From Closterium sp. NIES-65 (lineage: Eukaryota > Streptophyta > Zygnematophyceae > Desmidiales > Closteriaceae): a DNA stretch of 64,000 nucleotides. Location of the stretch: contig CANXME010002185.1 of assembly GCA_948144175.1 (NCBI GenBank), positions 330,926 through 394,925 on the forward strand, given 5' to 3'. The notes beneath the pieces are model-generated. The model worked only from the letters and a program-made list of their open reading frames with translations. It was not told the origin of the DNA and made no database searches. The position numbers were made by a program, and so were the translations under genes. This document shows, in pieces, positions 14,733 to 33,253 of the stretch. Numbering within the stretch: position 1 is the first letter of the stretch; the number at the start of each line of letters is the position of its first letter.

Positions 14733-15300
14733 CAGCAGGAAAGGGGAGAGGGGGGGGGGAGTGGGGTCAACAGGGTAATGAGCTCAGTGCAAGAGCAGGA
14801 GGGTGTGACAACCACTGGTGGCGGAAGGGCGGAGGATACTGCTCCACGTGCTGCTGCTGCTGTGTGGTTGCTCGGTGCTGCAGCTGCCCTCCACCTGCCA
14901 AGGTGCACAGTCACCACCACCAACACCACCCACAGGAGCCGCAGCAGCAGCAGCAAGAACAGCAAGAGCAGCAGCAGCAGCAGCAACACTAGCAGCAGCA
15001 GGAAGGGGGAGGGGGAGGGTAGCAGGGACAGGACAATTAGCTCAGTGCAAGGGCAGGTGGTTGTATTGATGGCACCACTAGTGGTGGAAGGGCGGAGGTT
15101 ACTGCTCCACATGCTGCTGCTGCTGTGTGGTTGCCAGGTGCTGCAACTGCCCTCCACCTGCCAAGTTACCCTGCTACCATCACCAACATCACGCACAGCA
15201 GCCACAGCCCCAGCAGCAAGAGTAGCAGCAAGAACAGCAGCAGCAGGAGCAGCAGCATCAGCAAGAGGAGAAACAACAGGAGCAGCAGCGGCAGAGCTAA
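14519..15300. repeat. Three tandem copies of a ~265-bp segment
   Basis: Copies begin near 14519, 14788 and 15046, each opening with GTGCAAGAGCAGGAGG or a close variant and containing a CTGCTCCA...TGCTGCTGCTG block and a CAGCAG-rich end. The first copy overlaps the 3' end of the transporter frame. The others may lie in its 3' UTR or beyond. Confidence 0.85.
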
Positions 15301-15950
15301 GATGTAACATCAACCTTCATCGTTATACTTGGTTTGCAAAATTCGTACCCTTCTCGTTTGGTTTGTAAATGTCACCGTAATCAGACTTCCAGGTTAGAGT
15401 AGGGACACCAAGGTTGCTACTCAACCAACATGCGTCTGCACTGCATATTATCTTGATTTGTAAATAGATTTGCTACAAGTTTTGAGTTTGTGCCATGTAG
15501 AGTCTGCTGAGCTCATAAAGGCTCATACGAACAAAAGGACGGGAATCAATTACAACCTAGGACGTGAAATGAATGTTCTTGTAAGGATAAGGACTGCTGG
15601 AACCTTGCAAGCAATTTGAGATGGCGACTAAATACCTTGCTGAAGGTACCAACCTAGCAAGGTTTATTAGATATGCCTTCACTTACGTATGGCAAAATAG
15701 ATTACTTTAATACTACAACCTGCACTACCATAGGAATGGACCACAGCCAGAAGAACCCACGCATTTCTTTCGCAAGTTTCATCTTACTACACCCTGAATT
15801 TGGCCCGCTTAAGCTGGGTGCATTGCCCTGATTGCCCTGTTTGTTTAGGGTGGAAGAGAAGACCACCCTCAGACAAAAAAAAGTGTCCAAGTGACAAGCT
15901 CACCATGCTGAAGCTTCATCACTGCTTATATCAGCAACAAGCTACTATAC
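15301..15950. other. Intergenic, nothing recognised
   Basis: A moderately AT-rich stretch with no family-like open frame. It should contain the transporter's 3' end and the intergenic boundary between two convergent genes. Confidence 0.5.
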
Positions 15951-16113
15951 CAGCAGCGGCACCTGACTCACCAGCACCAGCACCTGATCTACCAGCAGCA
16001 GCACCTGACCCACCAGCACCAGCACCTGACCCACCAGCACCAGCACCAGATCTACCAGCAGCAGCACCTGACCCACCAGCACTAGCACCTGATCTACCAG
16101 CAGCAGCACAGCA
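15951..16113. repeat. Minisatellite of 18/36-bp units
   Basis: Repeats of GCACCTGACCCACCAGCACC and CTACCAGCAGCA-type words. Translated on either strand it gives only Pro/Ala or Gly/Ala repeats. Confidence 0.8.
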
Positions 16114-16388
16114 GGCATAGACTAGAGCACTCGACAGCCAGCATTGCCTCAGCAGAAACAGAACCAGCTGCAGCACTACACCTCTCTTCCTCCCACTGTA
16201 AGCGCGGCCACTGTCGAGTTTCAAACCCGGCTTCACGTCAAGGATCCGGTCTACATCCACAGTCGCAGGTAGTCACCTACCCCCCCATTTTCAGCCCGTA
16301 CCAGCAGCAGCAGCAGCAGGGGCAGCATCGGCAGTTGTGAAGTGCACTACACCAGCCTCCCTCCCAGTCTAGGCGCAGCCACACTGGT

Positions 16389-16790
16389 GAGGTCCAGATC
16401 AGGCTTCACGTCGTGAATCCTGTCTACATCCACCGTTGCAGGGGTCATTGGTAGGAACCTCTGAGGCGCTACAAAAATCGACCCTCCTCCGCTGCTACAC
16501 CAGTCTGCCTCCCAGTCTAGGCGCAGCCACACTGGTGAGGTCCAGATCAGGCTTCACGTCGTGAATCCTGTCTACATCCACCGTTGCAGGGGTCATTGGT
16601 AGGAACCTCTGAGGCGCTACAAAAATCGACCCTCCTCCGCTGCTACACCAGTCTGCCTCCCAGTCTAGGCGCAGCCACACTGGTGAGGTCCAGATCAGGC
16701 TTCACGTCGTGGATTCGATCCACATCCACCGTTGCAGGAGTCATCGGTAAGAACCTCTGAGGCGCCACAAATATCGACCCTCCTCCCCCA
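16389..16790 (-). repeat. 148-bp tandem copies of the PSI gene's 3' coding end
   Basis: Copies start at 16389, 16537 and 16685, an exact period of 148 bp. Each encodes the same end on the minus strand (SIFVAPQRFLPMTP ... PRLGGRLV stop). Translation entering from upstream ends at the first stop at 16643-16645, so the further copies are downstream, probably 3' UTR. A weaker copy lies near 16200-16270. Confidence 0.88.
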
Positions 16791-18437
16791 GTGCTGCTGC
16801 TGCCCGCAGCACCACCACCCACTGCTTCCTCCGCCTCCATTCGCCTCAGCAGGCTGTATCTGCTTAGGGACTTTGTGAAGAACCGAGGGTTAGGCTCGGG
16901 CCGAGCCGCCATGGCAAACGTGTGGCTCCTGCTTCGGCCGTACGTGGCTTCTCGCATTGCCTCCATCATCTCTTCCGAAGCTGCGCCTCGGGCCGCCGGA
17001 CCAAAGCCCTGGCTCATGGTCATTGCTGCTAGCAGCGCTTCGCCCGCCAACGGCGGCCCCGAGCCTGCTGCCGAGCCTGGCAGCTTGCCTCGGTCGAGCG
17101 GGCTTCCAAAATCTCCGGCGGCGTCCACAGGGCGTTTCCCAGCATTACCCCCCATGCGAAGGGCGTTTTCTAAACTCTTCCGGCTGGTGCCCATGCCACT
17201 AGCTAGCGCCCTACGAGCAGCGGCAGCAGGAGATTCGGCATTCTCTGCTGTGGAAGCAGAAGTACCAGCAGCGCCAGCAGCAGCAGCGGTGGCAGCAGCG
17301 ACAGCTGGGATAAGCTTTCCACTGCTGCTAGAAGGACGACTCCCACCACCTCCTCCAGCCTTAGACGCCAGAGGAGCCAACAAATCGTCCTTCTCTTTCT
17401 TATGCAGCTCCTCCTCTTCCTCCTCTCCTTCCTCTCGCTCTCCCTTCTCCCCCTCTCCCTCCTCTTCTCCCTCGCCCTCTCCCTCCTCCCCTTCCATCAC
17501 CTCCACCTCAGGTACCGGCTCCAGGGATACTTCAGTAAGAGACGCCTGCCGGACCTGCCGCCACACCGGAGGCTCGGCCGAGCCTGCCGCATCCACCGCA
17601 CCAGCTTCAAGCCCAGCCGATCGAGGCCGACCGGTTTCCCCACCGCCCAACCCCTCTGCTGCGGCAGAATCCGAGGCCCCTTCTTCTGCGCGTGCCTTCT
17701 CCTCCTCCTCCATTGCTGCAATGCGCCGGGGGAGGGTTTCCCAATCGCCCACCGTTGGGACGCTCTCTGAGAGGCTGCGACGGGCGCGGGAGAGAGATAT
17801 GGGCGGCACAACTGCCAACTCTGCTTCCTTGCCTCCCCCTCCTCCTGCTGCTCCTCCTGCTGCTTCTCCTGCTGCTGCAGAAGCTCCTTCAGCTGCCCCC
17901 TGTGACTCCACAGAAGTGGACTTAGGCAACGGGAACCGGAAATCCTCTGGAATAGACGCAACTGCCTCATCAGACCCAGCCGAAAGAGCAGCAGCAGGAG
18001 CACCGTCTGACTCTGCAAGAGCAGTACCAACGGCAACAGCACCCGCGCTGGCAGAGGCTGTTACTACAGCAGTTATTTTCTCTTCCATCTCTCCAGTCTT
18101 CTCCCCATTAGCACGTACCACCATTCCCTCTAATTCACCCGCAGCAGCAGCCGTTTCAGCAGGAATATCATCACCAGCAGCACCAGCAGAACCAGCAGCG
18201 GCAGCAGCAGAAGAGCCGCCACGATCAGGAGACATGACCCTAGGGGAATACACCGGTGCAAGCACGGCCCCGCGGGGAACAGGGCTCCAGTCATTGTCCG
18301 CGCTGCGGCTGGCGAGGTGCTGAAGCCCCACGAGCAGCAGCAGCACGAGGCGTTCCATCTTGAGATGATCCACATGCTGCAGCGTCTGTAGGAGCGTTAG
18401 GTCCGTGTGCCCCTGCACCCTGCTGTCTAGCCCGAAC
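16643..18437 (-). CDS. PSI gene last exon (end of DUF668 and long tail)
   Basis: Acceptor CACCCAG. It starts with the family's late motif (LLQTLQHVDHLKMERLVLLL). About 500 residues of low-complexity sequence follow, rich in Ala, Gly, Ser and acidic runs (EGEGEEEGEGEKGE), with a basic/aromatic patch RSRSHTFAMAAR ... FFTKSLSRYSLLRRM near the end. Stop at 16,643. Confidence 0.83.
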
Positions 18438-18981
18438 CTGGGTGGGGGGAAAGAGTGAAGAGGGAGAATGAGAGCAAGGGAGATGGCAGGAGGAGAACTG
18501 GGAAAGAACGTGATGGGGAGCTGAAGCAGCGTCTGCAGGAGCGTCAGGTCCGTGTGCCCCTGCACTGCACCCTGCTGTCTAGCCCGAACCTGGGTGAGGA
18601 ATGAGGAAGGTGGAAGGGAGAGATAAGAGAATGAGAGAAGGAGTTGGCAGGGGGAGGATACAGAACAAGGTGACGGGGAGCTGAAGCAGCGTCTGCAGGA
18701 GCGTCAGGTCCGTGTGCCCCTGCACTGCACCCTGCTGTCTAGCCCGAACCTGGGAATGGGGATAGGCGGAACGAGGGAGGAAAAGGACAAAAACGGGAGG
18801 TGGTGGTTGGGAGGGTATGTGGGTGGCTGGGTGGGTGGGTTGACGGGGGTTGGAAGCAGAAGGGGTGCTACAGCCGAAGCAGCAGCGCTTCTTGTGCATG
18901 GGAAGCAGGGGAAACAGGGGCAGCAGGGGCAGGAGAGGTAGCGGAGGGGAGGGAGCGGCGGGTAGATGGTGCAAGCGCACG

Positions 18982-19012
<31 letters not shown>

Positions 19013-22000
19013 GCAGCAGAAATCTCAAGACGCAATGATCAAATTATCCATTCACGGAATGAGAACTCCAGAATAAGCATACCAAATGGTGTTGTCTCCT
19101 CCAAGACAAGTTCACCAGGCAGCCTCCAGTCCAGCACCGCCTCCATCTGCTGCTGCAAGCTGAGCAGCCTGTCTCTCTTTACAAGGCATGGCATGAACTG
19201 CAGGCTTTTGAGACGTCTCAAGAGCTGAGCAGCCTGTCTCTCTTTACAAGGCATGGCATGAACTGCAGGCTCGCTGTGGTCGAAACTCTTCCATTTCTTG
19301 TACGAGGCGTGAACCCAGTCATTCAAAGTGAACGCAGAGAGAAAAGTTGAGCAACGGTGTACAGAATGGTGCTTAGCTGAACGAACCGAATTGTGTTCTC
19401 TGCCATGGTAACCAGCCAGTCCAGCACCGCCTCCATCTTCTGCTGCAAGCCGCCTTGCTTTCTTTGTTATTCTGAAGTGACTTTAGTTTTGAGTCGACTC
19501 AAAAGTCACCTCTGTGTCGAGCACCTACGTACCGAATTGTGTTCTCTGCCATGGTAACCAGCCAGTCCAGCACCGCCTCCATCTTCTGCCGAATGCTCTC
19601 CGTGCTCTCCTGCAGAAAGGGGGTTGGCATGGCATGTGTGCGTGAGTATGTGTTACATGTGTGCACAGTGCGGGTATGTGTGTGGGCGCGTACAACCAGC
19701 CAATCCAGAACCGCCTCCATCTTCTGCCGAATGCTCTCCGTGCTCTCCTGCATGGAGAGAGCGGGAATGTGTGTGGGGGGGTGGAGAGGGGGGGATGGGA
19801 TGTGTGTACAAGTCAGTCCCTACACGACCAGCCAGCCAGTCCAGCACCGCTTCCATCTTTTGCCGGATGCTCTCCGTGCTCTCCTGTGGGGAAAGGGGGT
19901 TGGAATGAGTGAGTACGTGCCGAATGAGTATGCGTGTGTGTGTGGGCGCGTACAAGTGTGTATTAGTCTAATACAAGTGTGCAAGATTATTTCTGAAGCG
20001 ACCAGCCCTTCAGTCCAGCACCGCTTCCATCTTCTGCAGGATGCTCTCCGCGCTCTCCTGGAGAGGCGAGTGGGAGGGAGGAAAGGTTGAGGGGCGGAGT
20101 AGTTTCTCTAAGCTTGTGAATGCATGTGTAAGTATGGACGGTTCATCTTATCGACCAGACCAGTCCTGCACCGCTTCCAGCTTCTGCCGGATGCTCTCCG
20201 CGCTCTCCTGCAGAGGAGGTAAGAAGGAAGGTGGGGCAGCATGTGCGCGTGTGAGAGTTTGTGATGGGGTGTGTATGGGTAACCTTGTTATCGAAAAGTC
20301 CAGCACCGCCCCCAGCTTCTGCCGGATGCTCTCCGCGCTCTCCTGGAGAGGGAGAGGAGGGAAGGGGGTGTGCAGCTGAATGGATGTGTGTAATGTGTGT
20401 GGTGGTCAAGTCATTGCAGATACGACCAGCACAGTCCAGCACCGCCGTCAATACACCACACCACACCACACCACGCCGAACCGCACCACATCTCACCACA
20501 CCACACCCCACCCCACCGTACTGCACCCACCTGCTCTATGTCTTGTGACTGAGGCAGCGTGCGTTTCAACCGACCACACTGACAGAAGCAGGCAGAGCAG
20601 TGAAGGCATGGCGACCCCTCGATACCACACTACACCACATCACATCACACCGCACCGAACCGCACCACAACACACTGCACCACACCAAACCGCATCATAC
20701 ATAGCACACCCCACCCACCTGCTCTATGTCTTGGCGACTGCAGCAGCATGCGCTTTAACCAGCCATAGACAGAAGCAGGCAGAGCAGAGAAAGCATGGTG
20801 ACCCATGGTTACCACACCACACCGCATGGCACCGCACTGCACCCCACCCCACCCACCTGCTCTATGTCTTGCGACTGGAGCAGCGTGCGTTTCAACCGCC
20901 CACAGACAGAAGCAGGAAGAGCAGAGAAAAGCGCCTCCCTCTGAGTCTCCACGCATGCTGGGCGCATCACCTGAAGGGAAAAAGAAAGGGAGCACGCAAG
21001 AGGAGAGGGAAACCATGACATAGGGAACACTTTTGAGGCGCCTCAAAAGACATAGGGAACATTGGCTGGGCTGGGGAGGATGAGCACACAGACAGTAGCA
21101 GGTAGAGCAGAGAAAAGCGCCTCCCTCTGAGTCTCCACACATGCTGGGCGCATCACCTGGTAGCAGGGAGAGAGAAAGAAAAAGAAAGAGCAGGCGAGGA
21201 TGAAGACACAGAGGAGGATGAGCCTCCGTCTGAGTCTCCACACACGCTGGGCGCATCACCTGATGATAGGGAGGGGGCGGGGATAGGAAGTAGAGGGGAG
21301 GGATGAGATCAAGGCCCATGGGCTTACACACACCAGCCACACAATCGGCCAGAAGGGTCACCTTGGAAAAAAATAAGTGAAATGGAAAGGTACGGGAGAG
21401 AAAAGGGTAGGGTAGGCATACCATTGTGTTGATCATGTTCACAATGTTGGTGTATTGCAGCGCCATGCCGTTCACTCCGAGCTCATTACTCATTGCTACC
21501 ACCCGCAAGAAGGGAAATGAGAGCAGCACATAACGCGGCGCCGCAGATCAGGAAGGGAAAGCGAATGGGAGATGTACCATGGTGTCAATCATGCTGACAA
21601 TGTTGACGTACTGCAGCGCCATGCCGTTCACCCCACCCACCCACACACACGGTGTACTAGCAGGCTCACCAGGTCCCACCAGCACCAAGGAGAAGGGAGA
21701 GAGAGCAACACATATCATACCATGGTGTCAATCATGTTGACTGTGTTGGCGTACTGCAGCGCCATGCTAGCAAGCAATGCCAGCGTACCATCATGGCATG
21801 GGGAAGGAAGAGAGAGAGCATCGCATACCATCGTGCCGATCATGTTGACAATGTTGGCGTACTGCAGCGCCATGCCGTTCACTCCGAGCAGATTGCGGAG
21901 TGTTACTACCAGCATGAAGGGAAAGAGGGAGCAACACATACCATGGCGCCATTGATCATGAAGGGGAAGGGAGCGAGAGTAACACATAACTCACCATGGT

Positions 22001-25000
22001 GTCGATCATATTGACAATGTTGGCGTACTGCAGCGCCATGCCGTTCACTCCGAGCTGATTGCTACCACCAGCCAAGGGAAAAGGAGAGCCGCACATACCA
22101 AAGAGAGCAGCACATAACTCACCATGGTGTCAATCATGTTGACAATGTTGGCGTACTGCAGCGCCATGCCGTTCACTCCGAACAGATTGCGGAGTGTTAC
22201 TACCAGCATGAAGGGAAAGAGGGAGCAGCATATACCATGGCGCCATTGATCATGAAGGGGAAGGGAGCGAGAGTAACACATAACTCACCATGGTGTCGAT
22301 CATGTTGACAATGTTGGCGTACTGCAGCGCCATGCCGTTCACTCCGAGCTTCCTCAGATCAGCAGCCGAGGGCGGCGTGCCGGACATGAGGCGCCCCACC
22401 TTCACCACTGCAGGGGGCAAGGGGAAGGAGGAGACATAGTGGGGTTGGATAGATAAGAAGGAAGAGGGGTGCATGGGCAGCATGGATGGGGCAGGCAGAT
22501 CCGGGGAGGCGTGCCCGGCATGAGGCGCCCCACCTTCACCACTGCAGTGGCTGGGGGAAGGGGGAAGCTTCGAGTCGACTCAAAAGGGGAAGGGGGAAAA
22601 GGTGGGGTTGGATTAGGGTTGAGCAAAAAAACGAACACCTGCACGTTCGAGGCGAACTGAACAGGTATTTTTTTTTGGCTTAAAATGTTCGCCGAACAGT
22701 GTTCGATGTTCGCCCGAACACGTTCGTGTTCGGGCCGCTGCTGCAATTTGCCCGCGACGAACACGAACAGTGTTCGAGGTTCGCCCGAACACGCCTTCAC
22801 AGGCGAACGGCGAACACCATTTTTTGCTCAAAGTGTTCGCCGAACCGAACAGTGTTCGGTTCGGCAAACGAAGGTGTTCGTGTAGGGGCGAACACGAACA
22901 CGTTCGTGTTCGCCACTTAGGATAGATACGCCGGGAAAACGGTGCATGAGCGGCATGGATGGGAGGCGGATCAGCAGCTGTGGGAGGCGTGCCGGACATG
23001 AGGTGACCCACCTTCAACACTGTAGGGGGAAAGGGGAAGGAGGAAGGGTGTATGAGCGGCATGGATGGGAGGCATGCCGGACATGAGGCGCCCTTCACCA
23101 CAGAAATCGGTGGGTGAGATTACGATGCAGGTAAGGGTAGAAATGGAGGGGAGGGGGTACAAAGAAAGGAGATGGGATGGGTAGAGAGGAGGGGGAAATG
23201 AGCAGAAGATGGGCTTGCTTCCTCAAATCAACAGCTCATCGGGTGAATGTATGGAAGCAGCAATGACCTTTCTGCACTCACCATCGACCCCAAACACGTC
23301 TACGATCTGGTCGTGCAGGAATACGACCACTAGAATCACTCAGTTGTGGCAGGCACGTGGCAGCACAAGGCATGTACACGGAAACACTCACCATCGGCCC
23401 CAAACACGTCCACAATCTGGTCGTGCAGGAATATGACCACCTGAACTAGCTTCTCCACCACCTGCCGTTCAGCGCAGACAGGTAAGCAGGCAGGCAGGCA
23501 GGCAGGCAGTGCAGACAGGTAAGCAAGTAGGCAGTGCAGACAGGTAAGCAAGCAGGCAGTGCAGACAGGTAAGCAGGTAGGCAGGCAGTGCAGACAGGTA
23601 AGCAAGCAGGCAGTGCAGACAGGTAAGCAAGCAGGCAGTGCAAACAAAGGGGTTTTGGAGGAGAGGACCAAGGTACCAAAGTGGTGACCACCTGTAGCGC
23701 AGTGCAGTGCAGAAAGGTAGGCAGGCACTCACACCAGCTCACCTCACTTGCACTCCCTCACACCACACCAACGCACCTCGTCCATGGTTTTGGACCAGAG
23801 CCCTTTCTTCTTCATCGTTTTCACTACCTTCATAGCAACAAGTATCACCCATACAGGATGCACGAGCTCACACCAGCTCACACCAGCTCACACCAGCTCA
23901 CACCAGCTCACACCAGCTCACACCAGCTCACACCAGCTCACACCAGCTCACACGCACGCACACCAGCTCACACCAGCTCACACCAGCTCACACGCACGCA
24001 CACCAGCTCACACCAGCTCACACGCACGCACACGAACTCACACGCACGCACACCAGCTCACACCAGCTCACACCAGCTCACACGCACGCACACCAGCTCA
24101 CACCAGCTCACACCAGCTCACACGCACACGAACTCACACGCACGCACACCAGCTCACACCAGCTCACACCAGCTCACACGCACGCACACGAACTCACTCC
24201 ACCTCACACCAGCTCACACCAGCTCACACCAGCAGACCAGCCCACCTCATCCATGGTCTTCGACCAAAGCCCTTTCTTCTTCATCGTCTTCACTATCTTC
24301 TCCTGTGCCTTCATCTCTGCCCGCATCTGCGCTATCAGCTCTGCAAGAAAGGGGTGGGTTGGGTTCGGTTGGGAAGAGTTGGGATTGATTGGGTTGGGTT
24401 GGAATGGGTTTGGTGGGTTGCAATGCGATGGGATGGGAATGGAGGGTGAGAAGGGGCCACCTTCACTATCTTCTCCTGTACCTTCATCTCGGCCCGCATC
24501 TGCGCTATCAGCTCTGCAGGGACGGGGTGGGTTGAGTTCGGTTGGGACAGGTTGGGACAGGTTGGGTAAGTTGCAGTGCGATGGGAATGGAAGGTGAGAG
24601 TGTGCCACCTTCACTATTTCCACCTGCGCTTTCATCTCTGCTCTGCTTGCATCTGCTACCAGCCCTTCACCTCTGTGGGGAACCAATTGACTTTTGAGTC
24701 AACTCAAAAGACACCTCTGCTCGCATCTGCTGCCAGCCCTTCACCTCTGTGGGGAACCAATTGACTTTTGAGTCAACTCAAAAGACACCTCTGCTCGCAT
24801 CTCCTGCCAGCCCATCACCTCTGTGGGGAACCAATTGACTTTTGAGTCAACTCAAAAGACACCTCTGCTCGCATCTCCTGCCAGCCCATCACCTCTGTGT
24901 GGAACCAATTTGGAATGGAAAACAAGGGAAGCAGCAGCATACCTCTGTTGACTGCAGAGTCCGAGTCCTGCTTCACCCGTCTGTCCAGTGACTGCTGCAG

Positions 25001-28000
25001 CACTCCCTCTTCATGTTAAACAATGCCACCATTCCACCCACCCACCCACCACACACTCACCTCTGTTGACTGCAGAGACCGAGTCCTGCTTCACCCGTCT
25101 GTCCAGTAATTGCTGTAACTACTGCTCCAAACCTGCCAACTCCTTGTGTTCAGAAGTCAAGACCAAGGCAGTAACTCCCTTCTGTGCGTGAAAACATGGG
25201 AAGCAGCAGCATACCTCTGTTGACAGCGGAATCCGAGTCCTGCTTCATCCGTCTGTCCAACGACTGCTGCAGCACTCCCTCCTTGGTTCGTGTTCGTGCT
25301 AAGCAACGCCAACGTCCCACCACCGGCCCACCCGTCCCACCACACACTCACCTCTGTTTACAGCGGAGTCGGAGTCCTGCTTCACCCGTCTGTCCAACGA
25401 CTGCTGCAGCTGCTCCAGATTCGCCAACTCGTGGTACAGCTCCTGGTGGGGTGGAAGGGGGAAAAGACAAGAGTATTGGGGTGGGGGAGAACAGGGGGGA
25501 AGAGGGGAATGTGAATAACCGCAACACCTGCTGCAGCTGCTCCAGATTGGCCAACTCGTGGTACAGCTCCTGGTGGGGGAAAAGGGGGGGGGGAGGAGGA
25601 GGGGAAGGAGGAGGACAGGGGGGAGAAAGAGATACGTGAATCACCACAGAGACTGCTGCAGCTGCTCCGGATTGGCCAACTCGTGGTACAGCTCCTGGTG
25701 GGGGAAAAGGGGGGGGAGGAGGAGGAGGGGAAGGAGGAGGACAGGGGGGAGAAAGAGATACGTGAATCACCACAGAGACTGCTGCAGCTGCTCCGGATTG
25801 GTCAACTCGGGGTACAGCTCGTGATGGGGGGAATGGGGGGGGGAGGAGGATGGGGGGGAGAGGATGGGGGGTTGGCCAACTCATGGCACAATACGCTGCT
25901 ATGGAGGTTGCAACCCATGGCCCCCGAAAGTCAACACAGTATCCACCCACCCACTCACCGTTGTGATCTGCGCCTGCCCCTCCAGCGCCCGCAGCTCCCC
26001 CTCCCCCTCTGCTGCGATGCAAGTTGCATTGCAACCCATGGCCCCCAAGAGTCAACACAGAACCCACCCACTCACCGCTGTGATCTGCGCCTGCCCCTCC
26101 AGCGCCCGCAGCTCCCCCTCCACCTCCCCCCCCTCCACTTCTCCCTCAGCCTCAACCTTTGATGCTATGCAAGCCGCTGGAGACTCCACACCACTCACCG
26201 CTGTGATCTGCGCCTGCCCTTCCAAAGCTCGCAGCTCCCCCTCCACCTCCACTGATGTCATTCGGCCCTTGGGTCCATCCATGGTGCCGAGACTGGTGGG
26301 GGGAGCAAGGAAGAGAAGAGAGGAAGAGAGGAGTTGGGAAAAAAGGGGGGGGGGGGGGGGGGGGAGACAGGGACACAGGAGAGGGGGATTGAAGGAGAAA
26401 GGGAGAAAGTAGCCGAGTGGCAGGGTCAAGGCTTATGCTGATGTCATTCGGCCCTTGGGGCCATCTATGGTGCCAAGGCTGGTGAGGGGGAGAGCGAGAA
26501 GAGAGGGGGCAAGGGGGTAAGCAGCGCAGGTAAGGCGGGCTCGTGCGCTCCGACTTTTGATTCGACTCAAAAGTTGGCGAGGCTGGTGAGGGGGAGAGCG
26601 AGAAGAGAGGGGGCAAGGGGGTAAGCAGCGCAGGTAAGGCGGGCTCGTGCGCTCCGACTTTTGAGTCGACTCAAAAGTTGGCGAGGCTGGTGAGGGGGAG
26701 AGCGAGAAGAGAGGGGGCAAGGGGGTAAGCAGCGCAGGTAAGGCGGGCTCGTGCGCTCCGACTTTTGAGTCGACTCAAAAGTCACTTTTGAGTCGACTCA
26801 AAAGTTGGCGAGGCTGGTGAGGGGGAGAGCGAGAAGAGAGAGGGGGCAAGGGGGTAAGCAAGCAGCGCAGGTAAGGTGGGCTCGTGCGCTCTGCTGATGC
26901 CATTCGGCCCTTGGGGCCGTCCATGGTGCCGCCGAGACAGGTGGAGGGGAGAAATTGAAGGAGAGAAAGAAAAGAATTGGAGAGAGGGGGTAGGAAGGAA
27001 ATGGATCATGTAGGCATGGGGCGGATTCATGGCTTCCGCTGATGTCATTCGGCCTTTGGGACCGTCCGTGGTGCCGAGGCTGGTGGGGGCAAAGGGGGGG
27101 GTGTGGTTGGAGTTGACAGAGAAAGCGAGTGAGGGGTCAAGGAGCAGGGTCGTGGATTTGCTGGTATCATTCGGCCCTTACGTCCATCCATGGTGCCGAG
27201 GCTGGTGGGGAGGAGGAGTCATGACTTCTGCTGGCGACGATCCCAACGTTAAGGCCCAACGGAAGGAAGTCACACTTTTCGGTGCCGAAATTCACACCTG
27301 GACTGGAACGCAGGTGCGTGTGGACCTCCAAGCACCATCTCTGCTCTGCATCCATGGCTGTTGTCTTGTCAATTGAGAGACCAAGGGACCCGTGATTGCC
27401 TGAGCGTAGGTCAAACAGCCACTGTATGAAGAAGTGTTTTGAGACGTCTCAAAACACTTCTTCATACACGAGATTGCCTGAGCATAGGTCAAACGGCCAC
27501 CGCCCCACTCACGCACACATCAAACCCCATCCTTCACTAGTCGAGCCCCCATCGCTCAAGTGACAGATGTGCATAACACCCCACTCACGCACACATCAAA
27601 CCCCATCCTTCACTAGTCAAGCCCCCATCGCTCAAGTGACAGATGCGCATAACAGCCCACTCACGCGTCGAAGGCCTGTGTGAGCGAATGCAATGCCGGG
27701 TCCAGACATTGCTTGCCCAGCCGTGCCACATCCCTCGCCACTGCTCTCAACTCGCCCCTGTGTGCAGTGCAGTGCATGAGATGACGGAGGGAGAAGTGTG
27801 AGGAACAGAGGAAAGATGGTGGAGGGAGGAAGAAAGACGGGTCAAGTCAAGACATTGCTTGCCCAGCCGTGCCACATCCCTCGCCACTGCTCTCAACTCG
27901 CCCCTGTGTGCGTGAGAAAAGACGGTGGGGAGGGGAGGGGGAAGGGAGAAGAGTGAGGAACAGGAAACAGGGCAGAAAAGGTGAAGAGGAGGAAAAGCAA

Positions 28001-31000
28001 GGACGCCAGCCAGTTCCGAATCCCTGAAGCTCGTCAAAGCAGATCAAGGCTTTTCAAAACCTTCATGTACAGTACAGCAATCAGTCTTCATGTGTTGTGC
28101 TGTGCTGTGTGAAGTCAGCAGCACCACCGGTCCCTGATGATCTCATGATCTCTAATAATGCCATCCACCTGCCCACAAACCTGGTCTTTCTCTCCCACGC
28201 ACGCACCGCTTGTCCTCGGCAGCAATGCACCAGCATCCTTATGCCCTCCCACGCCACCACCTCCGCCCTCAGACCCTCTATGTCCCTCTCCCACACTCAC
28301 CGGCCCTACCACCCGTCCCAGCCCCACCCATCCTAGCCCTACCACCCGTCCCAGACCCACCACCTGTGTCCCACGCACCGCTTGTCCTCGGCAGCAATGC
28401 ACCAGGCGTGGTACAAGTCGTCTGACACCAGCATCCTTATGCCCTCCGATGCCAGCACCTCCGCCCGCAGGTCCTCTATATCCCGCTCCCGCACTCACCG
28501 GCCCTACCACCCATCCCAGCCAAACCACCCGTGTGCCACGCACCGACCGGCCCTACCATCCGGCCCGGCCCTACCACCCGTCCCACCCTCTCCCACGCAC
28601 CGCTTGTCCTCGGCAGCGATGCACCACACGTGGTAGAAGTCGTCTGACACCAGCATCCTTATGCCCTCCGATGCCAGCAACTCCGCCCGCAAGTCCTCTA
28701 TAGCCCGCTCCCATACTCACCACACCAGCCCTATCATCACCTGTCCCAGCCTGTCCTCACCGCTTGTCCTCGGCAGCAATGCACCACACGTGGTAGAAAT
28801 CATCCGAGACCAGCATCCTTATGCCCTCCGATGCCAGCACCTCCGCCCGAAGGTCCTCTATATCCCGCTCTAGCAGCGACTGGCGCAGGTTGATTGCCCT
28901 GACGATCACGTTTGCCACTTCAAACCCCATGATCTCAATTCTGAGACCAAGGAGGGGAAACGGGGAAGGGAAGCCGAGGGGGGAAGGGGAAGGGGGGGAG
29001 AGAGGGGAGGAGGGGGAGGAGAATGCGATTGAACACTTGGTACTCATTTTCCTTCGCGTGAATGAATGTCTTAGAACGAGGGTGGGGTTGGGGGGGGGGA
29101 CAACGGGGTGAGGTGCTTCAGAAGCATGCTACTTATGGAACCTGCACGGACCTGCACGGACCTGCACGGACCTGCATGTACCTGCACGGACCTGCACGGA
29201 CCTGCATGTACCTGCACGGACCTGCACGGACCTGCACGGACTGAACCTCTGCCACTCACTTTCCCTTGGAGCGGATGAGCTTTGGGCCAACAGGGGTGGT
29301 CGCCTCCTCTGCTGCAGGCGCTTCCCTGCTAGTCAAAAGCAGGGACATGCCAAAAGAACAGAATGGGGAAAAGAGAGGGGCAGAGGAGACAAGACAGCAG
29401 AGAGCGTTTTGGCATCTTTGGGCCCAGTTCCGGGGCTAGGGCTTAATCAAAGGGCAAGCTGGATCCAAACCTGAACACCGAAGTCTATTTTTGAGGCGCC
29501 TCATAAATAGACCCTGTTCCGAGGCTAAGACTTAATCAAAGGGCAAACTGGATCCAGCATGCGTGCATTTTTGAGGCGCCTCAAAAGGCATCCGACTTTT
29601 GAGACGCCTCAAGAAACGAATTTTGTTTAAGGCGCCTCAAAAGGCATCTGTAGCGTTGAGCTTTCGGCCCCGTCTCTGGGCTTAGGTTTATTCAAAGGGC
29701 AAACTGGCTCCGACTCAAAACACCAAAGTGCATGCATGCATGCATTTTAGAGACTAAGATCATGGTCTGGTCGAATGAAGGATAAATGCAGGTTTGGCGA
29801 CTCAGGATCATGCGGTGCAGTGCGGTTCAAACAGCTTTTGCGGCTCTTCACAAGAGGCCGGTTGTGCCTGGTCGCATGAATGAAGATACGCGCAGTGTGT
29901 AAGTTTAGCGACTCACCCTCGCGTGGGTGACGCAGTTGGTGCGGCAGCAGCGCCTGCTGGTGAGGCTGAGGATTGTGAGGACTGTTTGGGGGGGGAAAGG
30001 GCAACGGAGGAGAGGAGAGGAGAGGAGAGGAGAGGACTGCTGGTGAGGGCAGAGAAGCAGTGGGTGGAACGATGAAAGAAAATATAGAATGGCGGAGTCA
30101 CAAAACTAGTCCCTGCTGCTGGTGTGGCTGAGAATTGCGAAGACTGCTTTGAGGATGGAGGGGGCATCAGAGAATAAATAACGGCGTTTGGAGACGTCAG
30201 AAAACTAGCGCCTGCTGGTGAAGCCGAGGATTGAGTTGAGAGGACTGTTTGAAAGGGGACAGCGGACAGAAGGGCAACATACAGACAGACACAGAGGGAA
30301 CGGAGTCACTGACGCATTGAATTAGGCAAACAGGGGCCACAGTGAAACTAGAAGTGACATTGGTGGAAAGGCGACAGCCGTGTGTCGGTGTGACAACAGC
30401 TTAAATGTCTGACCCCGCAGCAGCAGAACCGGAGAGAAAAACGAATACAGGAGGCGGGGTGGGGGTTGGGGGGCTGGGAAGAGGGGAAGAGGGGGGGGAG
30501 GGCAGGGGGAGGATGGGGAGAAAACGGGGGAAAGGACAAGGGGGGAGAGGGAGGGACTGGGGAGGCGGGGTGGGCGGGAGGGGTCCTCAATGTCTTGATG
30601 TCAGTACAAAATCGCTGTGAGATTGCGAGTAGCAACAGCTGAAGTGCCAAAAAAGAAGAAAAAAAAGGGTAGTTACTCCTACGCTAATAGTACAACTCTA
30701 ACTCCATAATTTCTCGTACGACCTACGCTACTAGTACTACTCTACTCCATAATATCTCGACAATAGTACCTTGAATCCGCGGACGCCCCCCGTTGGCAAA
30801 CAGTGGATGCCCGTCGCTTCCCGCGGCGACGACTCCACGCCTTTGTCGTCGCCGTTGTCCGTGCTGTCGCCCTGGTCATCCCTGCGACGGCTTTTACTGA
30901 AAAGCGACGGCAGGCGACCCGAAGCCGATTTCCCAGCTGTCGCATCGTCAACGCTGCGACCCGACGCTACCTTGGCTTGCGATTGCAATGTTTCGTCAAT

Positions 31001-31081
31001 TTTCGTCAATCCACTTTCATCTTCGCTGACTCGGTCTGGTAACAGGTCCTTGACAGCCGGTTTGGACTGTATACACCCCAT
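16643..31081 (-). CDS. PSI family protein (DUF3475-DUF668, PSK SIMULATOR-like), about 14 exons
   Basis: Members of this plant family are N-myristoylated scaffold proteins linked to peptide-hormone and growth signalling. The start gives MGCIQSKP, a myristoylation (Gly2) and palmitoylation (Cys3) signal. The N-terminal DUF3475 block includes GFEVANVIVRA and ASEGIRMLVSDDFY. The C-terminal DUF668 block includes GVNGMALQYANIV, LFSALPASVCGRLKR, EAVLDWLVTMAENTI and the late LLQTLQHVDHL. Exons from 29,328 to 16,643 join in consistent splice phase: 2,2,2,0,1,0,1,0,0,0,2 at successive junctions. The last exon adds a ~500-residue Ala/Glu/Ser-rich tail, longer than usual for the family. The join from exon 1 to exon 3 is not settled. 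Introns are packed with copies of exon edges, so alternative splicing or mis-annotation is likely. Confidence 0.85.
18380..18760 (-). repeat. Echo copies of the last PSI exon's start
   Basis: Two further copies of the acceptor plus VQGHTDLTLLQTL coding sequence lie upstream in gene direction, near 18,530-18,600 and 18,680-18,755. Each carries the same CAGGTTCGGGCTAGACAGCA start. Confidence 0.85.
18761..19040. other. Low-complexity intron part
   Basis: G-rich then CAG/AGC-rich sequence inside the last PSI intron; no coding signal. Confidence 0.5.
19206..19223. repeat. Palindrome, TTTTGAG/CTCAAAA family (ACGT core)
   Basis: Reads TTTTGAGACGTCTCAAGA, with two changes in the right arm. It sits exactly between two ~47-bp direct copies. 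Confidence 0.85.
19487..19504. repeat. Perfect palindrome, TCGA core
   Basis: TTTTGAGTCGACTCAAAA lies between direct copies starting at 19,385 and 19,531 (echoes of exon 13). Confidence 0.95.
19533..19609 (-). CDS. PSI gene exon 13
   Basis: 77 nt encoding ESTESIRQKMEAVLDWLVTM and AENTIR, the family's EMEKSLQWLVPFAENTT block. Acceptor CTGCAG, donor CG|GTACGT. Joins the last exon in phase as R|FGLDSRVQ. Confidence 0.88.
20857..20970 (-). CDS. PSI gene exon 12
   Basis: 114 nt encoding VMRPACVETQREALFSALPA and SVCGRLKRTLLQSQDIEQ, matching DUF668's LYNALPATVKTALR segment. Acceptor TTCAG, donor CAG|GTGGGT. Confidence 0.88.
21031..21048. repeat. Perfect palindrome, GCGC core
   Basis: TTTTGAGGCGCCTCAAAA is bracketed by a 13-bp direct repeat GACATAGGGAACA (21,017-21,029 and 21,049-21,061). 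Confidence 0.95.
21332..21361 (-). CDS. PSI gene exon 11 (micro-exon)
   Basis: 30 nt encoding VTLLADCVAG between acceptor CCAAG and a weak donor GTGTGT. It keeps phase 0 between exons 10 and 12. It might instead be skipped, which also keeps frame. Confidence 0.6.
21420..22288 (-). repeat. Echo array of PSI exon 10, 3' end
   Basis: Seven downstream copies encode GMALQYANIVNMI with donor ATG|GTGAG or a variant, near 21,425-21,480, 21,585-21,640, 21,720-21,765, 21,830-21,890, 21,995-22,050, 22,120-22,180. Copies differ by scattered substitutions and spacer length. Confidence 0.9.
22289..22407 (-). CDS. PSI gene exon 10 (start of DUF668)
   Basis: 119 nt encoding VVKVGRLMSGTPPSAADLRK and LGVNGMALQYANIVNMIDTM. 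This is the conserved Ala-Leu-x-Tyr-Ala-Asn motif that opens DUF668. Acceptor CTGCAG, donor ATG|GTGAGT. Confidence 0.9.
22569..22585. repeat. Degenerate palindrome, TCGA core
   Basis: TTCGAGTCGACTCAAAA in the intron before PSI exon 10. Confidence 0.75.
22617..22920. repeat. GTTCG/CGAAC-rich element inside a PSI intron
   Basis: About 300 bp in which CGAAC and GTTCG words recur more than twenty times and form short palindromes such as GAACACGTTCGTGTTC. It interrupts an echo array. It could be a small foldback or MITE-type element; I see no clear target duplication. Confidence 0.6.
23280..23330 (-). repeat. Echo copy of PSI exon 9, 3' end
   Basis: Encodes FLHDQIVDVFGVDG followed by GTGAG, ~110 bp downstream of the real exon end. 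Confidence 0.8.
23392..23461 (-). CDS. PSI gene exon 9
   Basis: 70 nt encoding VVEKLVQVVIFLHDQIVDVF and GAD(G), matching the family's EKLVDVV...IVEVFG segment. Donor GATG|GTGAGTG. Confidence 0.87.
23465..23645. repeat. 24-28-bp minisatellite
   Basis: About six repeats of AGCAGGCAGTGCAGACAGGT-type units in the intron between PSI exons 8 and 9. Confidence 0.85.
23775..23845 (-). repeat. Echo copy of PSI exon 8, 3' end
   Basis: Encodes VVKTMKKKGLWSKTMDE with a following GTGCGT-like donor, on the far side of the decamer minisatellite from the real exon. Confidence 0.8.
23865..24236. repeat. 10-bp minisatellite ACACCAGCTC
   Basis: Roughly 37 near-identical decamers, interspersed with ACACGCACGC variants, between PSI exon 8 and an echo of its end. 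Confidence 0.95.
24246..24340 (-). CDS. PSI gene exon 8
   Basis: 95 nt encoding ELIAQMRAEMKAQEKIVKTM and KKKGLWSKTMDE, the family's KKLVKSLQKKSLWS-type block. Acceptor TTGCAG, donor GAG|GTGGGC. Confidence 0.88.
24455..24665 (-). repeat. Echo copies of PSI exon 8, 5' end
   Basis: Two copies (near 24,460-24,520 and 24,600-24,660) of the acceptor and the start encoding AEMKAQ, upstream in gene direction. Confidence 0.82.
24636..24910. repeat. 74-bp tandem block separated by imperfect palindromes
   Basis: Four copies of a ~53-bp block alternate with three copies of TTTTGAGTCAACTCAAAA at 24692, 24766 and 24840. Period exactly 74 bp. The 5' end of the array overlaps an echo of exon 8. Confidence 0.92.
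24945..25265 (-). repeat. Echo copies of PSI exon 7, 3' end
   Basis: Three downstream copies encode SLDRRVKQDSDSAVNRG, ending with AG|GT-type donors, near 24,950-25,000, 25,065-25,120 and 25,210-25,275. Confidence 0.87.
25352..25442 (-). CDS. PSI gene exon 7
   Basis: 91 nt encoding ELYHELANLEQLQQSLDRR and VKQDSDSAVNR, which corresponds to the family's ELYHELQALDRFEQ region. Acceptor CCACCAG, donor AGAG|GTGAGT. Confidence 0.88.
25500..25885 (-). repeat. Echo copies of PSI exon 7, 5' end
   Basis: Three or four upstream copies of CCACCAG plus the start encoding ELYHELANLEQLQQ, near 25,525-25,575, 25,650-25,700, 25,775-25,825 and a short one near 25,875. Confidence 0.87.
25955..26135 (-). repeat. 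Echo copies of PSI exon 6, 3' end
   Basis: Two downstream copies encode ALEGQAQITA followed by GTGAGTGG. Confidence 0.85.
26199..26292 (-). CDS. PSI gene exon 6
   Basis: 94 nt encoding LGTMDGPKGRMTSVEVEGEL and RALEGQAQITA, with acceptor CCAG|TCTCGG and donor GCG|GTGAGTGG. In phase with exons 5 and 7, leading into the conserved ELYHEL. Confidence 0.85.
26440..27210 (-). repeat. Echo copies of PSI exon 6, 5' end
   Basis: Four upstream copies with acceptor ACCAG and coding GTMDGPKGRM lie near 26,440-26,480, 26,890-26,935, 27,035-27,080 and 27,165-27,205. The first is embedded in a 104-bp block (next entry). Confidence 0.86.
26475..26890. repeat. 104-bp tandem block separated by palindromes
   Basis: Four copies of an ~85-bp block alternate with palindromes at 26555, 26659, 26763 and 26786, the last two adjacent. 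The first three palindromes are exactly 104 bp apart. Confidence 0.92.
27423..27468. repeat. 46-bp perfect palindrome with ACGT core
   Basis: The TTTTGAGACGTCTCAAAA centre (27,437-27,454) is extended to 23 complementary bases per arm. It lies between two 29-bp direct repeats (27,394-27,422 and 27,472-27,500) with two mismatches. Confidence 0.95.
27520..27660. repeat. Direct repeat of ~85 bp
   Basis: CCCCACTCACGCACACATCA...CAAGTGACAGATG occurs twice in tandem downstream of PSI exon 5. Its start copies the exon-5 donor region. Confidence 0.8.
27665..27757 (-). CDS. PSI gene exon 5
   Basis: 93 nt, CACACAG|...|GTGAGTGG, encoding GELRAVARDVARLGKQCLD and PALHSLTQAFDA. This matches the family segment after the AASDKREE region and joins exon 4 through the split Arg codon. 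Confidence 0.88.
27845..27905 (-). repeat. Echo copy of PSI exon 5, 5' end
   Basis: Acceptor CACACAG and GELRAVARDVARLGKQCLD are repeated with very few differences upstream of the real exon. Confidence 0.88.
28200..28712 (-). repeat. Echo copies of PSI exon 4, 3' end
   Basis: Three downstream copies encode ASEGIRMLVSDD ... IAAEDKR or shortened variants with GCG|GTGCGTGG donors, near 28,210-28,300, 28,380-28,490 and 28,605-28,712. Confidence 0.9.
28761..28940 (-). CDS. PSI gene exon 4 (DUF3475 core)
   Basis: Acceptor TCTCAG, donor AAGCG|GTGAGG. Encodes IEIMGFEVANVIVRAINLR, then LLERDIEDLRAEVLASEGIR and MLVSDDFYHVWCIAAEDKR, the hallmark of the family N-terminal domain. Ends in phase 2. Confidence 0.9.
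29138..29241. repeat. 10-bp minisatellite CCTGCACGGA
   Basis: About ten decamers with CCTGCATGTA variants in the intron before PSI exon 4. Confidence 0.92.
29260..29328 (-). CDS. PSI gene exon 3
   Basis: Encodes REAPAAEEATTPVGPKLIRS and KGK with donor GGAAA|GTGAGT. It joins the next exon as K|IEIMGFEVAN, the start of DUF3475. The acceptor is either of two nearby AGs (start 29,328 or 29,325). Confidence 0.75.
29425..29715. repeat. Three copies of a ~40-bp block separated by palindromes
   Basis: Blocks containing CTTAATCAAAGGGCAA or close variants occur near 29,430, 29,516 and 29,667. Palindromes lie between them (29,489-29,506, 29,569-29,586, 29,597-29,614, 29,626-29,642). Confidence 0.88.
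29917..29953 (-). CDS. PSI gene candidate small exon 2
   Basis: 37 nt between acceptor CAGCAG and donor GTGAGTCG. Read as AAAAPTASPTR it would supply phase 2 to the next exon but needs phase 1 from the exon before. Diverged copies of its start with acceptor lie near 30,110-30,130 and 30,205-30,235. Confidence 0.45.
30770..31081 (-). CDS. PSI gene exon 1 (N-terminal, acylation signal)
   Basis: 104 codons from MGCIQSKP to VRGFK with donor AAG|GTACTA. A polar, Ser/Asp/Arg-rich linker follows the acylation signal. The start fits because Gly at position 2 is required for myristoylation. It ends in phase 0, which does not directly fit the exon at 29,917-29,953. Confidence 0.8.
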
Positions 31082-33117
31082 AAGTCGCTGGCTAGGGTTA
31101 GGAGGCTAATACCGCGAAGCTCAATAACGCGGCATTGTCGATTGTCGCACTCGGTCAAACGTAGAGAAGGGCATTGGTGGATATCTACCAACTGGAATAG
31201 CGCAGCAAACCTCGAGGTCTAGGAGAAAGAATATCGGAGAAATAAACAAAACAAAATACCTACGAAATAAATACGATCGGGTATGATATTGGAGGCGCTA
31301 AAAACAGAAACAGAACTACCACGAAATATATACGATCGCGTATGTCGCGTCAAGCCACTAGCCAATGTAGCGTCTTTAGGACAAACTCCTACTTCGGGTC
31401 ACTACTAGGCGGCAAACAAGAGCACCAAGGTAACATGCCAACACCAACGAACGTGCCGACACTAACGAACGAGCCAACAATAACGAACTCAACACTAACG
31501 GGTGTGCAGGAAGGCGGGAGCGACGCGAAGGTCGATCTTTGGGACGGGAAGTCCGGCAACCTAGGCTGTCATGGCTATTGATGGCAGCACTTCCTAACCC
31601 CACAGCCTGCTGGTTGCTGACTGTGGGTCTGAGGTCACTCTTATTTCACTGACAGGACGCACGCTCTTCATGTCACGACTCACTACTACAAGCGGTAGAG
31701 TGGTTTGAGAGGTGATAAATCAGCTGGCTGGAGCTGTGGCTCGTGGAGATGACGAGGGGATGTCAAACAACAGTTCTCGGTAATACGGTAATATGCGTTT
31801 ATAGGCGGCTAATTTACATATCAAAACGATCAGGTATGGTAGGCTTTGAGAAGGAAGCTAGTGTAACCGTCCCAGTGTTCCGTACGAACGACACAAGCAG
31901 CAGTTTCCCGAGAGGTGTCACATGGAACTCTTCACCAGCCTGGACAGTCCTTGACCACATTTGGAACCACCACTCACCACCATCAAGCCAGCTCCACCCC
32001 GCACGCACCCGAACTGAAACAAGGATTTTGCACGAACTGTAGCATATTGTACAGGTCCGGGCCCATTCCATCTACAGTATACTGGCGTGGTCATTTTAAA
32101 TAACAAGCAATGTTGTATGGTTTGGCAAAAAAAAGAACAAGAGGCGACGATATCGTCTTAGGGTTGCGAAGCTTTTTACGTAACTGTAAGTACACATTTT
32201 TCTACAATTTATTGATCTGTACATAATACTGTAGTATGACACTGACATGGTGTTTTTTTCCTACGTTCCAAGATTCCGAAAAAACATACTCAGGATTTGT
32301 ACCCCGCACCTCTTGATTATAGGCTGTCCTTCAACAACTGCGGTACCACTACTCTAACTTTCGTAAGTCGTAAAAGTGTCTTCACGTTTAGTTTGCGACG
32401 AATCTGACCCTTCCTTAGGGTTTCCCTTTTCTCCCTCCTTCCTCTCGCTGGTTGAGCTCCCCGCTAGTCACGCTCGACCTAGTAGTTCCTACTAAGGTGA
32501 GAACCCTAACCTATCAAGCAGAATTAAGTTAGATGATTGCTAGCTATACTAACATATTTTATACTCTAGTGCTGACCGCGTTTAGAAGATGTCAGTTGAT
32601 TAAGCTTAGGTTTTAGACTTTAGGTCAGGTCTTTAATAAGCCTGCACAGTTCTTTTGTAGATCGTTCCCTTTTCTCTGTTGAATTCTTATTGCCTCGTAT
32701 TTGCAAATTTTCTCTGACTTTCTCACTTCCTTACTTCTATTCTACTAGGTAGTTAAACTAGTCTGCCGTTTTCATATGTCTAGGTGCATCTTAGCTTGCT
32801 GAACTTCGATTTACGTATGTTTTCATGTCGTTTTCTTACTTGTCGTTTTCCATTTTCCTGTTTTTCCGTTTTCCTTACTCCTCCCATTCTTTCTCTTATC
32901 TTCATTCCAGCCACTGAATCCGAGCTGAGATCGAAGCCATTGTGCTACCGACGCCGTAAGTTATTGCGTCGTGCTTTAATTGATCGTTTTGCAAATTCAA
33001 AATGTACCTTAGGGTTTCCTGATTATTTGTCGCTGCTTTCTCTTCCAACGCTACCCAAAGCACTAGCGCCACTCACGCCTAGTGTAGCTACTCGCCACTA
33101 CGTCACCATAGCTCCTT
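31082..33117. other. Intergenic DNA upstream of the PSI gene
   Basis: No family-like coding region. It should hold the PSI promoter near 31,090-31,400. A short AACGAAC/CCAACA repeat lies at ~31,431-31,505. On the plus strand there are splice-like joints (ACTAAG|GTGAGA near 32,490; TTCCAG|CCACTG...GACGCC|GTAAGT at ~32,911-32,957) that could be non-coding exons. Confidence 0.45.
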
Positions 33118-33122
33118 AAGGT

Positions 33123-33253
33123 TGAGAAAATGAGAACGAGAATGGATGAACTATGAATGAAGTGAGTACAAGTACTAACCCTAATTGGGTTGTACCCCTT
33201 GTAGGCTACCCCACTATAGCCTACACAATATGCAAAAGCTATATGTTCTGACA
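33123..33253 (-). repeat. 3' LTR of element C
   Basis: On the minus strand it starts TGTCAGAACA and ends TTTTCTCA. A CTATGGGGGTG tract precedes it in element direction. Confidence 0.93.

What the first reader, a model, noticed from the sequence alone, without database searches (positions are those of the whole stretch)
18380..30240. Exon-edge echo arrays: PSI introns consist largely of outward copies of neighbouring exon ends
Seen directly: for exons 4-10, 12, 13 and 14 of the PSI gene, the upstream intron holds diverged copies of the exon start with its acceptor and the downstream intron holds copies of the exon end with its donor. Copies of starts are not seen downstream, nor ends upstream. 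Copy number per edge ranges from 1 to about 7. A simple neutral reading is that short tandem duplications happen everywhere and survive only when they span a splice junction and leave one intact exon. Alternatively the repeated splice sites may act as decoys or buffers, or introns may have grown by this route.
Basis: partly seen in the sequence, partly recalled or inferred. Interest (0 to 1): 0.95.

Follow-up and report, generated by a model that had tools for sequence, protein, structure and literature searches.

The report
Introns lengthened by duplicated exon edges
In a single-celled green alga, the introns of one gene are full of decaying copies of the neighbouring exon ends, best explained by repeated tandem duplications of about 150 DNA letters that survive only where they leave one exon intact.

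Summary
In a Closterium PSK-SIMULATOR-like gene (minus strand, 31081-16643), blastn finds 46 exon-copy hits in the introns: 22 exon starts upstream, 18 exon ends downstream, 1 whole exon, 5 interior; none on the wrong side, in another intron or on the other strand. Shuffled introns gave 1 hit in 50 sets. The E4 array recurs in two other contigs, the E12 array in one.

Changes private to copies hit all codon positions alike; splice dinucleotides are lost at the neutral rate (3 of 41; 3.2 expected); against a near-identical locus echoes mutate no slower than spacers (4/996, 2/1966; exons 0/310); a paralogue shows no arrays. A neutral simulation gives the observed share only if introns began at 150-250 bp. 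A decoy function finds no support.

Unexplained: spacers are less alike than the echoes they separate, and exons carry more synonymous changes than expected. Single junction-spanning duplications are known (potato RdRp); recurrence on this scale with a common unit near 150 bp is a new variant.

The parts
16643..31081 (-). PSI1-like gene (DUF3475 + DUF668), 13 exons: E1 31081-30770, E2 29981-29917, E3 29328-29260, E4 28940-28761, E5 27757-27665, E6 26292-26199, E7 25442-25352, E8 24340-24246, E9 23461-23392, E10 22407-22289, E11 20970-20857, E12 19609-19533, E14 18437-16643
   Evidence: frame-continuous model; Pfam; NIES-54/NIES-64 proteins
30116..30233 (-). E2 start echo 30143-30116 and an interior piece 30233-30207, upstream intron
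28207..28710 (-). E4 end echoes: 28710-28601, 28488-28379, and a third copy with a deletion, found as two hits 28290-28229 and 28232-28207
27846..27903 (-). E5 start echo
26438..27200 (-). E6 start echoes (4): 26477-26438, 26931-26894, 27078-27035, 27200-27161
   Evidence: the copy at about 26932 has lost its AG
25959..26127 (-). E6 end echoes (2): 26127-26076, 26009-25959
25522..25820 (-). E7 start echoes (3): 25569-25522, 25694-25651, 25820-25777
   Evidence: the outermost has lost its AG
24943..25273 (-). E7 end echoes (3): 25273-25215, 25142-25061, 25001-24943
24461..24641 (-). E8 start echo 24513-24461 and an interior piece 24641-24609
23777..23831 (-). E8 end echo
23282..23330 (-). E9 end echo
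22504..23100 (-). E10 start echoes (3): 22541-22504, 23019-22969, 23100-23067
   Evidence: the outermost has lost its AG
21422..22181 (-). E10 end echoes (6): 22181-22123, 22056-21995, 21889-21829, 21767-21721, 21634-21578, 21483-21422
   Evidence: differences from the exon 1, 1, 2, 3 (over 47 nt), 4, 5 going outward
21084..21259 (-). E11 start echoes (2)
20531..20792 (-). E11 end echoes (2)
19694..20446 (-). E12 start echoes (5) and one interior piece (20446-20425)
19126..19462 (-). whole-exon E12 copy 19462-19387 and an interior piece 19161-19126
18526..18749 (-). E14 start echoes (2)

Best explanation
The echoes are by-products of a mutational process. Short tandem duplications, mostly 100-200 bp with a mode near 150 bp, arise along the genome. 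One that falls across a donor leaves exon + donor + copy of exon end + donor; splicing from the first donor keeps the exon intact and puts the copy in the downstream intron. One that falls across an acceptor leaves the copy in the upstream intron, with the last acceptor used. Duplications inside an exon or over a whole exon mostly change the mRNA and are lost. Repetition, including duplication of units already in the array, lengthens the intron outward, so inner copies tend to be younger. The copies then decay as neutral DNA and keep a record of older synonymous states of the exon. Shown: the arrangement, the orientation rule, the unit size, lack of coding constraint in copies, neutral-rate loss of splice sites, no arrays found in a paralogue, recurrence in some other genes. 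Inferred: that the first donor and last acceptor are the ones used (from frame and from one annotated relative; no RNA examined), and the molecular route (break repair with fill-in, or replication slippage).
For: Orientation 40 of 40 among hits carrying a start or end, besides 1 whole and 5 interior. Successive copies 103-222 bp apart in 35 of 38 cases, median 150. Within arrays the outer copy is more diverged in 31 pairs, less in 5, equal in 4 (pairs not independent). 38 of 46 hits aligned: 150 differences in 1,994 positions; changes private to one copy fall 13/18/21 on codon positions 1/2/3. Splice dinucleotides lost in 3 of 41 junction copies, 3.2 expected from the divergence at codon positions 1+2. 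Near-identical locus C2122, 3.5 kb: substitutions exon 0/310, echo 4/996, spacer 2/1966, transposon-like stretch 4/175; the four echo changes lead away from the exon (my comparison with the sequence). Only 3 of 38 echo sites would give an open in-frame extension. No arrays in a self-comparison of the paralogue on C2069. Simulation: echo share 0.28 (0.19-0.41) from 150-bp introns, 0.146 (0.07-0.23) from 250 bp; observed 0.218. Outside the gene, local direct repeats peak at 140-160 bp (89 pairs in 161.6 kb); local inverted pairs number 2 over 26 regions. Glucan synthase and myosin: of 23 overlapping neighbour pairs 12 fit, 9 undecided, 2 labelled contrary.
Against: If each unit carried intron and exon parts together, the spacers should be about as alike as the exon parts. 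Only 13 of 43 adjacent pairs have significantly similar spacers, and in the E7 end array spacers group copies 0+2 and 1+3 while exon parts group 0+1 and 2+3 (my reading). Decay by indels in low-complexity spacers is my explanation (C2122: 2 indels in spacers, 0 in echoes) and is not proven; gene conversion is possible. In 473 nt the exon lineage has 15 changes (all synonymous) against 15 of any kind in the nearest copy; I expect about 3.5. From 350- or 500-bp introns the simulation gives too small a share (0.109, 0.04-0.18; 0.051, 0.00-0.13), and published mean intron lengths are 485-554 bp. It predicts 17-30 pure intron duplications; I read about seven families. The 9 undecided pairs have similar ranges and could be whole-exon copies, which the survival filter should disfavour; the 2 labelled contrary differ by 2-3 residues at each end.
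Confidence: 0.8

Rival explanations
1. Functional echoes: the extra splice sites act as decoys, buffers or regulated alternative sites and are kept by selection.
For: All 19 donor echoes examined keep GT; exon-derived parts are more alike than the abutting spacers.
Against: 3 of 22 acceptor echoes have lost AG; losses overall equal the neutral expectation. No codon-position bias in changes private to copies. 3 of 38 would be open in frame. 4 substitutions in 996 echo bases between near-identical loci against 2 in 1966 spacer bases. No arrays in the paralogue.
Confidence: 0.05
2. Exon-derived parts are kept alike by gene conversion with the exon and with one another, after tandem duplication made them. 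This does not exclude the best explanation.
For: Conflict between the groupings of spacers and exon parts in the E7 end array, and partly in the E12 start array; high identity of exon parts beside unrelated spacers.
Against: Changes private to copies are numerous (52 sites); the four recent changes in echoes all lead away from the exon; outer copies stay more diverged.
Confidence: 0.25
3. Insertion of filler DNA flanked by a long duplicated target, so that each spacer is new rather than copied intron.
For: Spacers not significantly alike in 30 of 43 adjacent pairs; a dispersed palindrome often sits beside direct repeats (10 of 21 against 133 of 2000 random places and 125 of 1000 in this gene).
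Against: 30 of 60 spacers do match another spacer of the same array, and recent units match across exon and intron parts (E7 start copies 1 and 2, E10 end units 0 and 2).
Confidence: 0.1
4. Selection drives exons to change at synonymous sites so that they outcompete their echoes for the spliceosome.
For: 15 exon-lineage changes, all synonymous, where about 3.5 are expected.
Against: Small numbers, nine arrays of one gene; no splicing data; 0 substitutions in 310 exon bases against C2122.
Confidence: 0.04
5. Assembly artefact from noisy long reads.
For: C604 differs from the window mostly by small indels, two of them inside exons, so end-of-contig sequence is imperfect.
Against: The E4 array is in three contigs and the E12 array in two, with traces in the NIES-64 protein; copies differ mainly by substitutions (150 against 26 gap columns); the reads are long (PMC10407611).
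Confidence: 0.02

Closest known systems
[quoted passage not shown] passages incl. most of the abstract seen)
   Same: A tandem duplication crosses an intron-exon boundary, and the copy carries the 3' splice site, polypyrimidine tract and exon start.
   Different: There one event created a new intron by recruiting a cryptic donor. Here many events at both kinds of junction lengthen existing introns.
Rogers/Hellsten AGGT model of intron gain (PMC3443670; passages seen)
   Same: Tandem duplication as a source of intron sequence.
   Different: That model duplicates an exonic AGGT segment and makes a new intron; here the junction itself is duplicated.
Small tandem duplications from break repair (Schimmel et al. 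2021, PMC8355091; abstract and list of sections seen)
   Same: A known route to short tandem duplications through fill-in at breaks with 3' overhangs.
   Different: Its section titles name human and mouse cells; not tested in Closterium, and the unit near 150 bp is not explained by it.
Introner elements (PMC9860276; search listing only)
   Same: Repeated sequences inside introns, removed by splicing.
   Different: Introners are one element copied into many genes; each echo matches only its own neighbouring exon in the window.
Tandem or mutually exclusive exons (recalled)
   Same: Exon copies next to the exon.
   Different: Only 1 of 46 hits is a whole exon, and the copies show no coding constraint.

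Membership tests
[quoted passage not shown]
[quoted passage not shown]
   the exons join in frame and the echoes lie inside introns; ancestral intron positions compared only loosely with the paralogue, no RNA
Junction-spanning tandem duplication (potato RdRp kind of event) | copy carries splice site plus exon edge, beside the original | tested here: met
   40 of 46 hits carry an exon start or end on the expected side; dinucleotides kept in 38 of 41 junction copies examined
Introner elements | same element at many unrelated loci | tested here: not met
   no exon hit outside the adjoining introns in the 64-kb window. A genome search with the E4 region listed three copies of this locus and nothing else; one with the E12 region listed this locus, a diverged paralogue and short pieces I take for the palindrome. 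That search skips very common words. Spacers were not searched in the genome.
Alternative tandem exons | both splice sites and coding constraint in each copy | tested here: not met
   1 whole copy of 46; codon positions 13/18/21; 3 of 38 open in frame
Minisatellite | head-to-tail copies of one unit | tested here: inconclusive
   regular spacing but spacers not significantly alike in 30 of 43 adjacent pairs
Polymerase alpha/CST break-repair duplication | dependence on those enzymes | not testable with these tools
   needs mutants

The most novel reading that the evidence does not exclude
Closterium has a quantised duplication process: tandem duplications of nucleosome-like size (mode near 150 bp, a hint of a second peak near 290 bp), sometimes set off at a dispersed palindrome (TTTTGAGNCGNCTCAAAA), act across its non-transposon DNA. 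Junction-spanning products are a main route by which its introns lengthen, leaving in each intron an outward, dated record of the exon's past synonymous states.
Probability: 0.33. Interest if true: 0.72.

Novelty: new variant of a known kind. Interest (0 to 1): 0.57.

Why it matters
How introns lengthen is usually put down to transposons (general knowledge, not searched). Here growth by local duplication can be read step by step, and the survival filter makes a clear prediction (starts upstream, ends downstream) that can be scored in any genome. The echoes give a neutral yardstick beside each exon, and they warn gene annotators: two NIES-64 protein models translate echoes. My paper searches listed no description of it; they cover open-licence PubMed Central papers only, and I read titles and starts of abstracts, not all hits.

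Tried and rejected
Rejected: constraint on echoes as the cause of their similarity. An exon 13. Using C604 as an allele for rates: its differences are 3 substitutions and mostly small indels. Using the C1724/C2400 pair for rates: 14 mismatches before the alignment end, 3 of them in repeated segments, too few (counted by me). Window gene against the ten DUF668 loci by blastn: one weak hit; tblastn with PSI and two homologues over seven concatenated regions: two matches at E < 0.05. One search used 38 of 46 hits (interior, split, deleted or degenerate copies dropped); one search examined 41 junctions (four interior pieces dropped, two hits of one copy merged); one search used gapless alignments only; one search used nine arrays with at least two copies. 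A plasmid search with E10 found nothing. Not done: further gene families, genome search of spacers, genome-wide palindrome count (one search did not complete).
Full report
WHAT THE LOCUS IS. The window lies at the end of contig C1887 of an 874-Mb assembly. A further copy of the locus lies at the start of contig C604, whose length (1,358,188) is that of the contig of a NIES-65 protein, so I take the strain to be Closterium sp. NIES-65 of the C. psl complex; this is an inference. The gene on the minus strand encodes a PSK-SIMULATOR-like protein (name recalled): DUF3475 and DUF668 are both found. Thirteen exons join in frame across twelve introns. An annotated NIES-54 protein reads through the same joins from E2 to E11, apart from a few substitutions and one residue at the E2/E3 join, so the echo sites are skipped in that independent model.

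THE OBSERVATION. Exons against the whole window, both strands, give 46 non-self hits, every one on the same strand in an adjoining intron. By class: 22 exon starts upstream, 18 exon ends downstream, one whole exon downstream, five interior pieces, none contrary; 50 shuffled intron sets gave one hit in all. The copies fill 21.8% of 11,265 intron bases; introns average 939 bp, against published strain means of 485-554 bp (PMC10407611, table passage). Successive copies lie 103-222 bp apart in 35 of 38 cases, median 150.

HOW THE COPIES EVOLVE. 38 of the 46 hits were aligned to their exons: 150 differences in 1,994 positions, 25, 28 and 97 at codon positions 1, 2 and 3, and 26 gap columns, 20 of them in the two E14 copies. 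The third-position excess comes largely from the exon: where all copies agree and the exon differs, 14 of 15 sites are third positions and all 15 are synonymous; changes private to one copy are spread 13/18/21. Copies thus behave as non-coding records of a coding exon. Outer copies are more diverged than inner ones in 31 array pairs, less in 5, equal in 4. Splice dinucleotides are lost in 3 of 41 junction copies (0 of 19 donors, 3 of 22 acceptors), with 3.2 expected from the divergence at codon positions 1 and 2. Use of an echo site would give an open in-frame extension in 3 of 38 cases.

COMPARISON WITH OTHER LOCI. C2122 carries a near-identical locus. Over 3.5 kb: 0 substitutions in 310 exon bases, 4 in 996 echo bases, 2 in 1,966 spacer bases, and 4 in 175 bases of a transposon-like stretch beside an indel. 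Numbers are small, but echoes are not slower than spacers. All four echo changes lead away from the exon sequence (my comparison). A diverged paralogue on C2069 (about 85% and 82% identical in two exons) has its matches to E4-E14 within about 3.6 kb, though not every exon was found, and a self-comparison at E <= 1e-4 shows only a 28-bp minisatellite and one 26-bp match. From the tblastn positions I estimate its introns at 200-300 bp.

THE WIDER GENOME. Local direct repeats (offset 60-600) occur in 23 of the 26 regions scanned, at a lower density than here; local inverted ones number two; the two retrotransposon-dominated stretches of the window (28 kb) have none (some regions are duplicate contigs). 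Outside this gene 89 pairs in 161.6 kb peak at 140-160 bp, with a hint of a second peak at 280-300. The rule holds in a DUF668 relative on C1724 (two start copies upstream, one end copy downstream), in a major-facilitator-like transporter gene of the window (start copy near 13640-13750), and in a gene near 53.9 kb (start copy 54058-54162); exon borders and gene names there are my reading. In glucan synthase and myosin genes, 150 exon-level matches (in one search only 65 of 259 candidates were scored) hold 23 overlapping neighbour pairs: 12 fit, 9 are undecided because the two ranges are alike, and 2 are labelled contrary by the script but differ by only 2-3 residues at both ends. Some fitting pairs are the same event in duplicate contigs.

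THE NEUTRAL MODEL. A simulation with duplications of 145 +/- 30 bp placed at random, rejected when they alter the mRNA, gives an echo share of 0.28 (range 0.19-0.41) from 150-bp introns, 0.146 (0.07-0.23) from 250, 0.109 (0.04-0.18) from 350 and 0.051 (0.00-0.13) from 500; observed 0.218. So it reproduces the share only from short starting introns, like those of the paralogue, and not from introns of the published mean length. It has no decay, so its shares are upper values. It also predicts 17-30 duplications wholly within introns; I could read only about seven families, which may reflect decay.

WHAT DOES NOT FIT SIMPLY. Next to exon parts about 89% alike, the abutting intron parts are mostly at background (15 of 42 end pairs and 6 of 48 start pairs exceed the 95% level). 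Whole spacers are alike in 13 of 43 adjacent pairs, and 30 of 60 have a relative in the array. Groupings of spacers and exon parts disagree in the E7 end array. Fast indel change of low-complexity spacers may explain the first, gene conversion the second; neither is shown. The exon lineage has 15 synonymous changes where about 3.5 would be expected from the nearest copies (expectation by me).

VERDICT. The finding is real, and its neutral reading is the best supported. Junction-spanning tandem duplication is known as a single event in potato (PMC4974935, passages); the intron-gain review I saw in passages treats duplication as a source of new introns (PMC3443670) rather than of longer ones. 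Recurrence at most exons of a gene, the orientation rule and the common unit near 150 bp make this a new variant. Break repair with fill-in makes short tandem duplications in cells (PMC8355091, abstract); other work on such duplications in plants is recalled and not checked.

Noticed in passing
window 19487, 21030, 24691, 24765, 24839, 26657, 26760, 26784, 27423, 29569, 60691, 60740, 61150, 63231; also L011, L012, L014, L024: A palindrome TTTTGAG-NCGN-CTCAAAA with a variable centre, self-complementary in 16 of 21; 21 in 194 kb, 10 of them abutting direct repeats of 12 bp or more, against 133 of 2000 random places and 125 of 1000 places in the PSI gene.
   Followed up: partly
window 21016-21062 and L048: The near-identical locus C2122 has one extra 32-bp unit of direct repeat plus palindrome here, so this unit changes copy number.
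   Followed up: partly
L011-L014, L019-L026, L029, C2069 (L045, L046) and window 11000-16600, 50000-64000: Local direct repeats have a preferred offset of 140-160 bp, near nucleosome size (size recalled), with a hint of a second peak at 280-300 bp.
   Followed up: partly
exons E4, E6, E7 and others of the PSI gene: The exon lineage has more synonymous changes than neutral decay of its echoes would predict (15 against about 3.5).
   Followed up: partly
window 22620-22920: A GTTCG-rich fold-back-like stretch sits between two E10 start echoes and differs from C2122 by an indel and nearby substitutions.
   Followed up: no
window 23870-24230: A long CACCAGCTCA minisatellite lies in the intron after E8.
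   Followed up: no
window 1-10800 and 33000-49000: Copia-like retrotransposon reading frames (my reading) without local repeats.
   Followed up: no
NIES-64 proteins P0001 and P0006: Published gene models translate echo copies and spacers as coding sequence.
   Followed up: no
L047 (C604:1-5500): A third copy of the locus at a contig start differs from the window by 3 substitutions and mostly small indels, two of them inside exons; probably an unpolished duplicate contig.
   Followed up: partly
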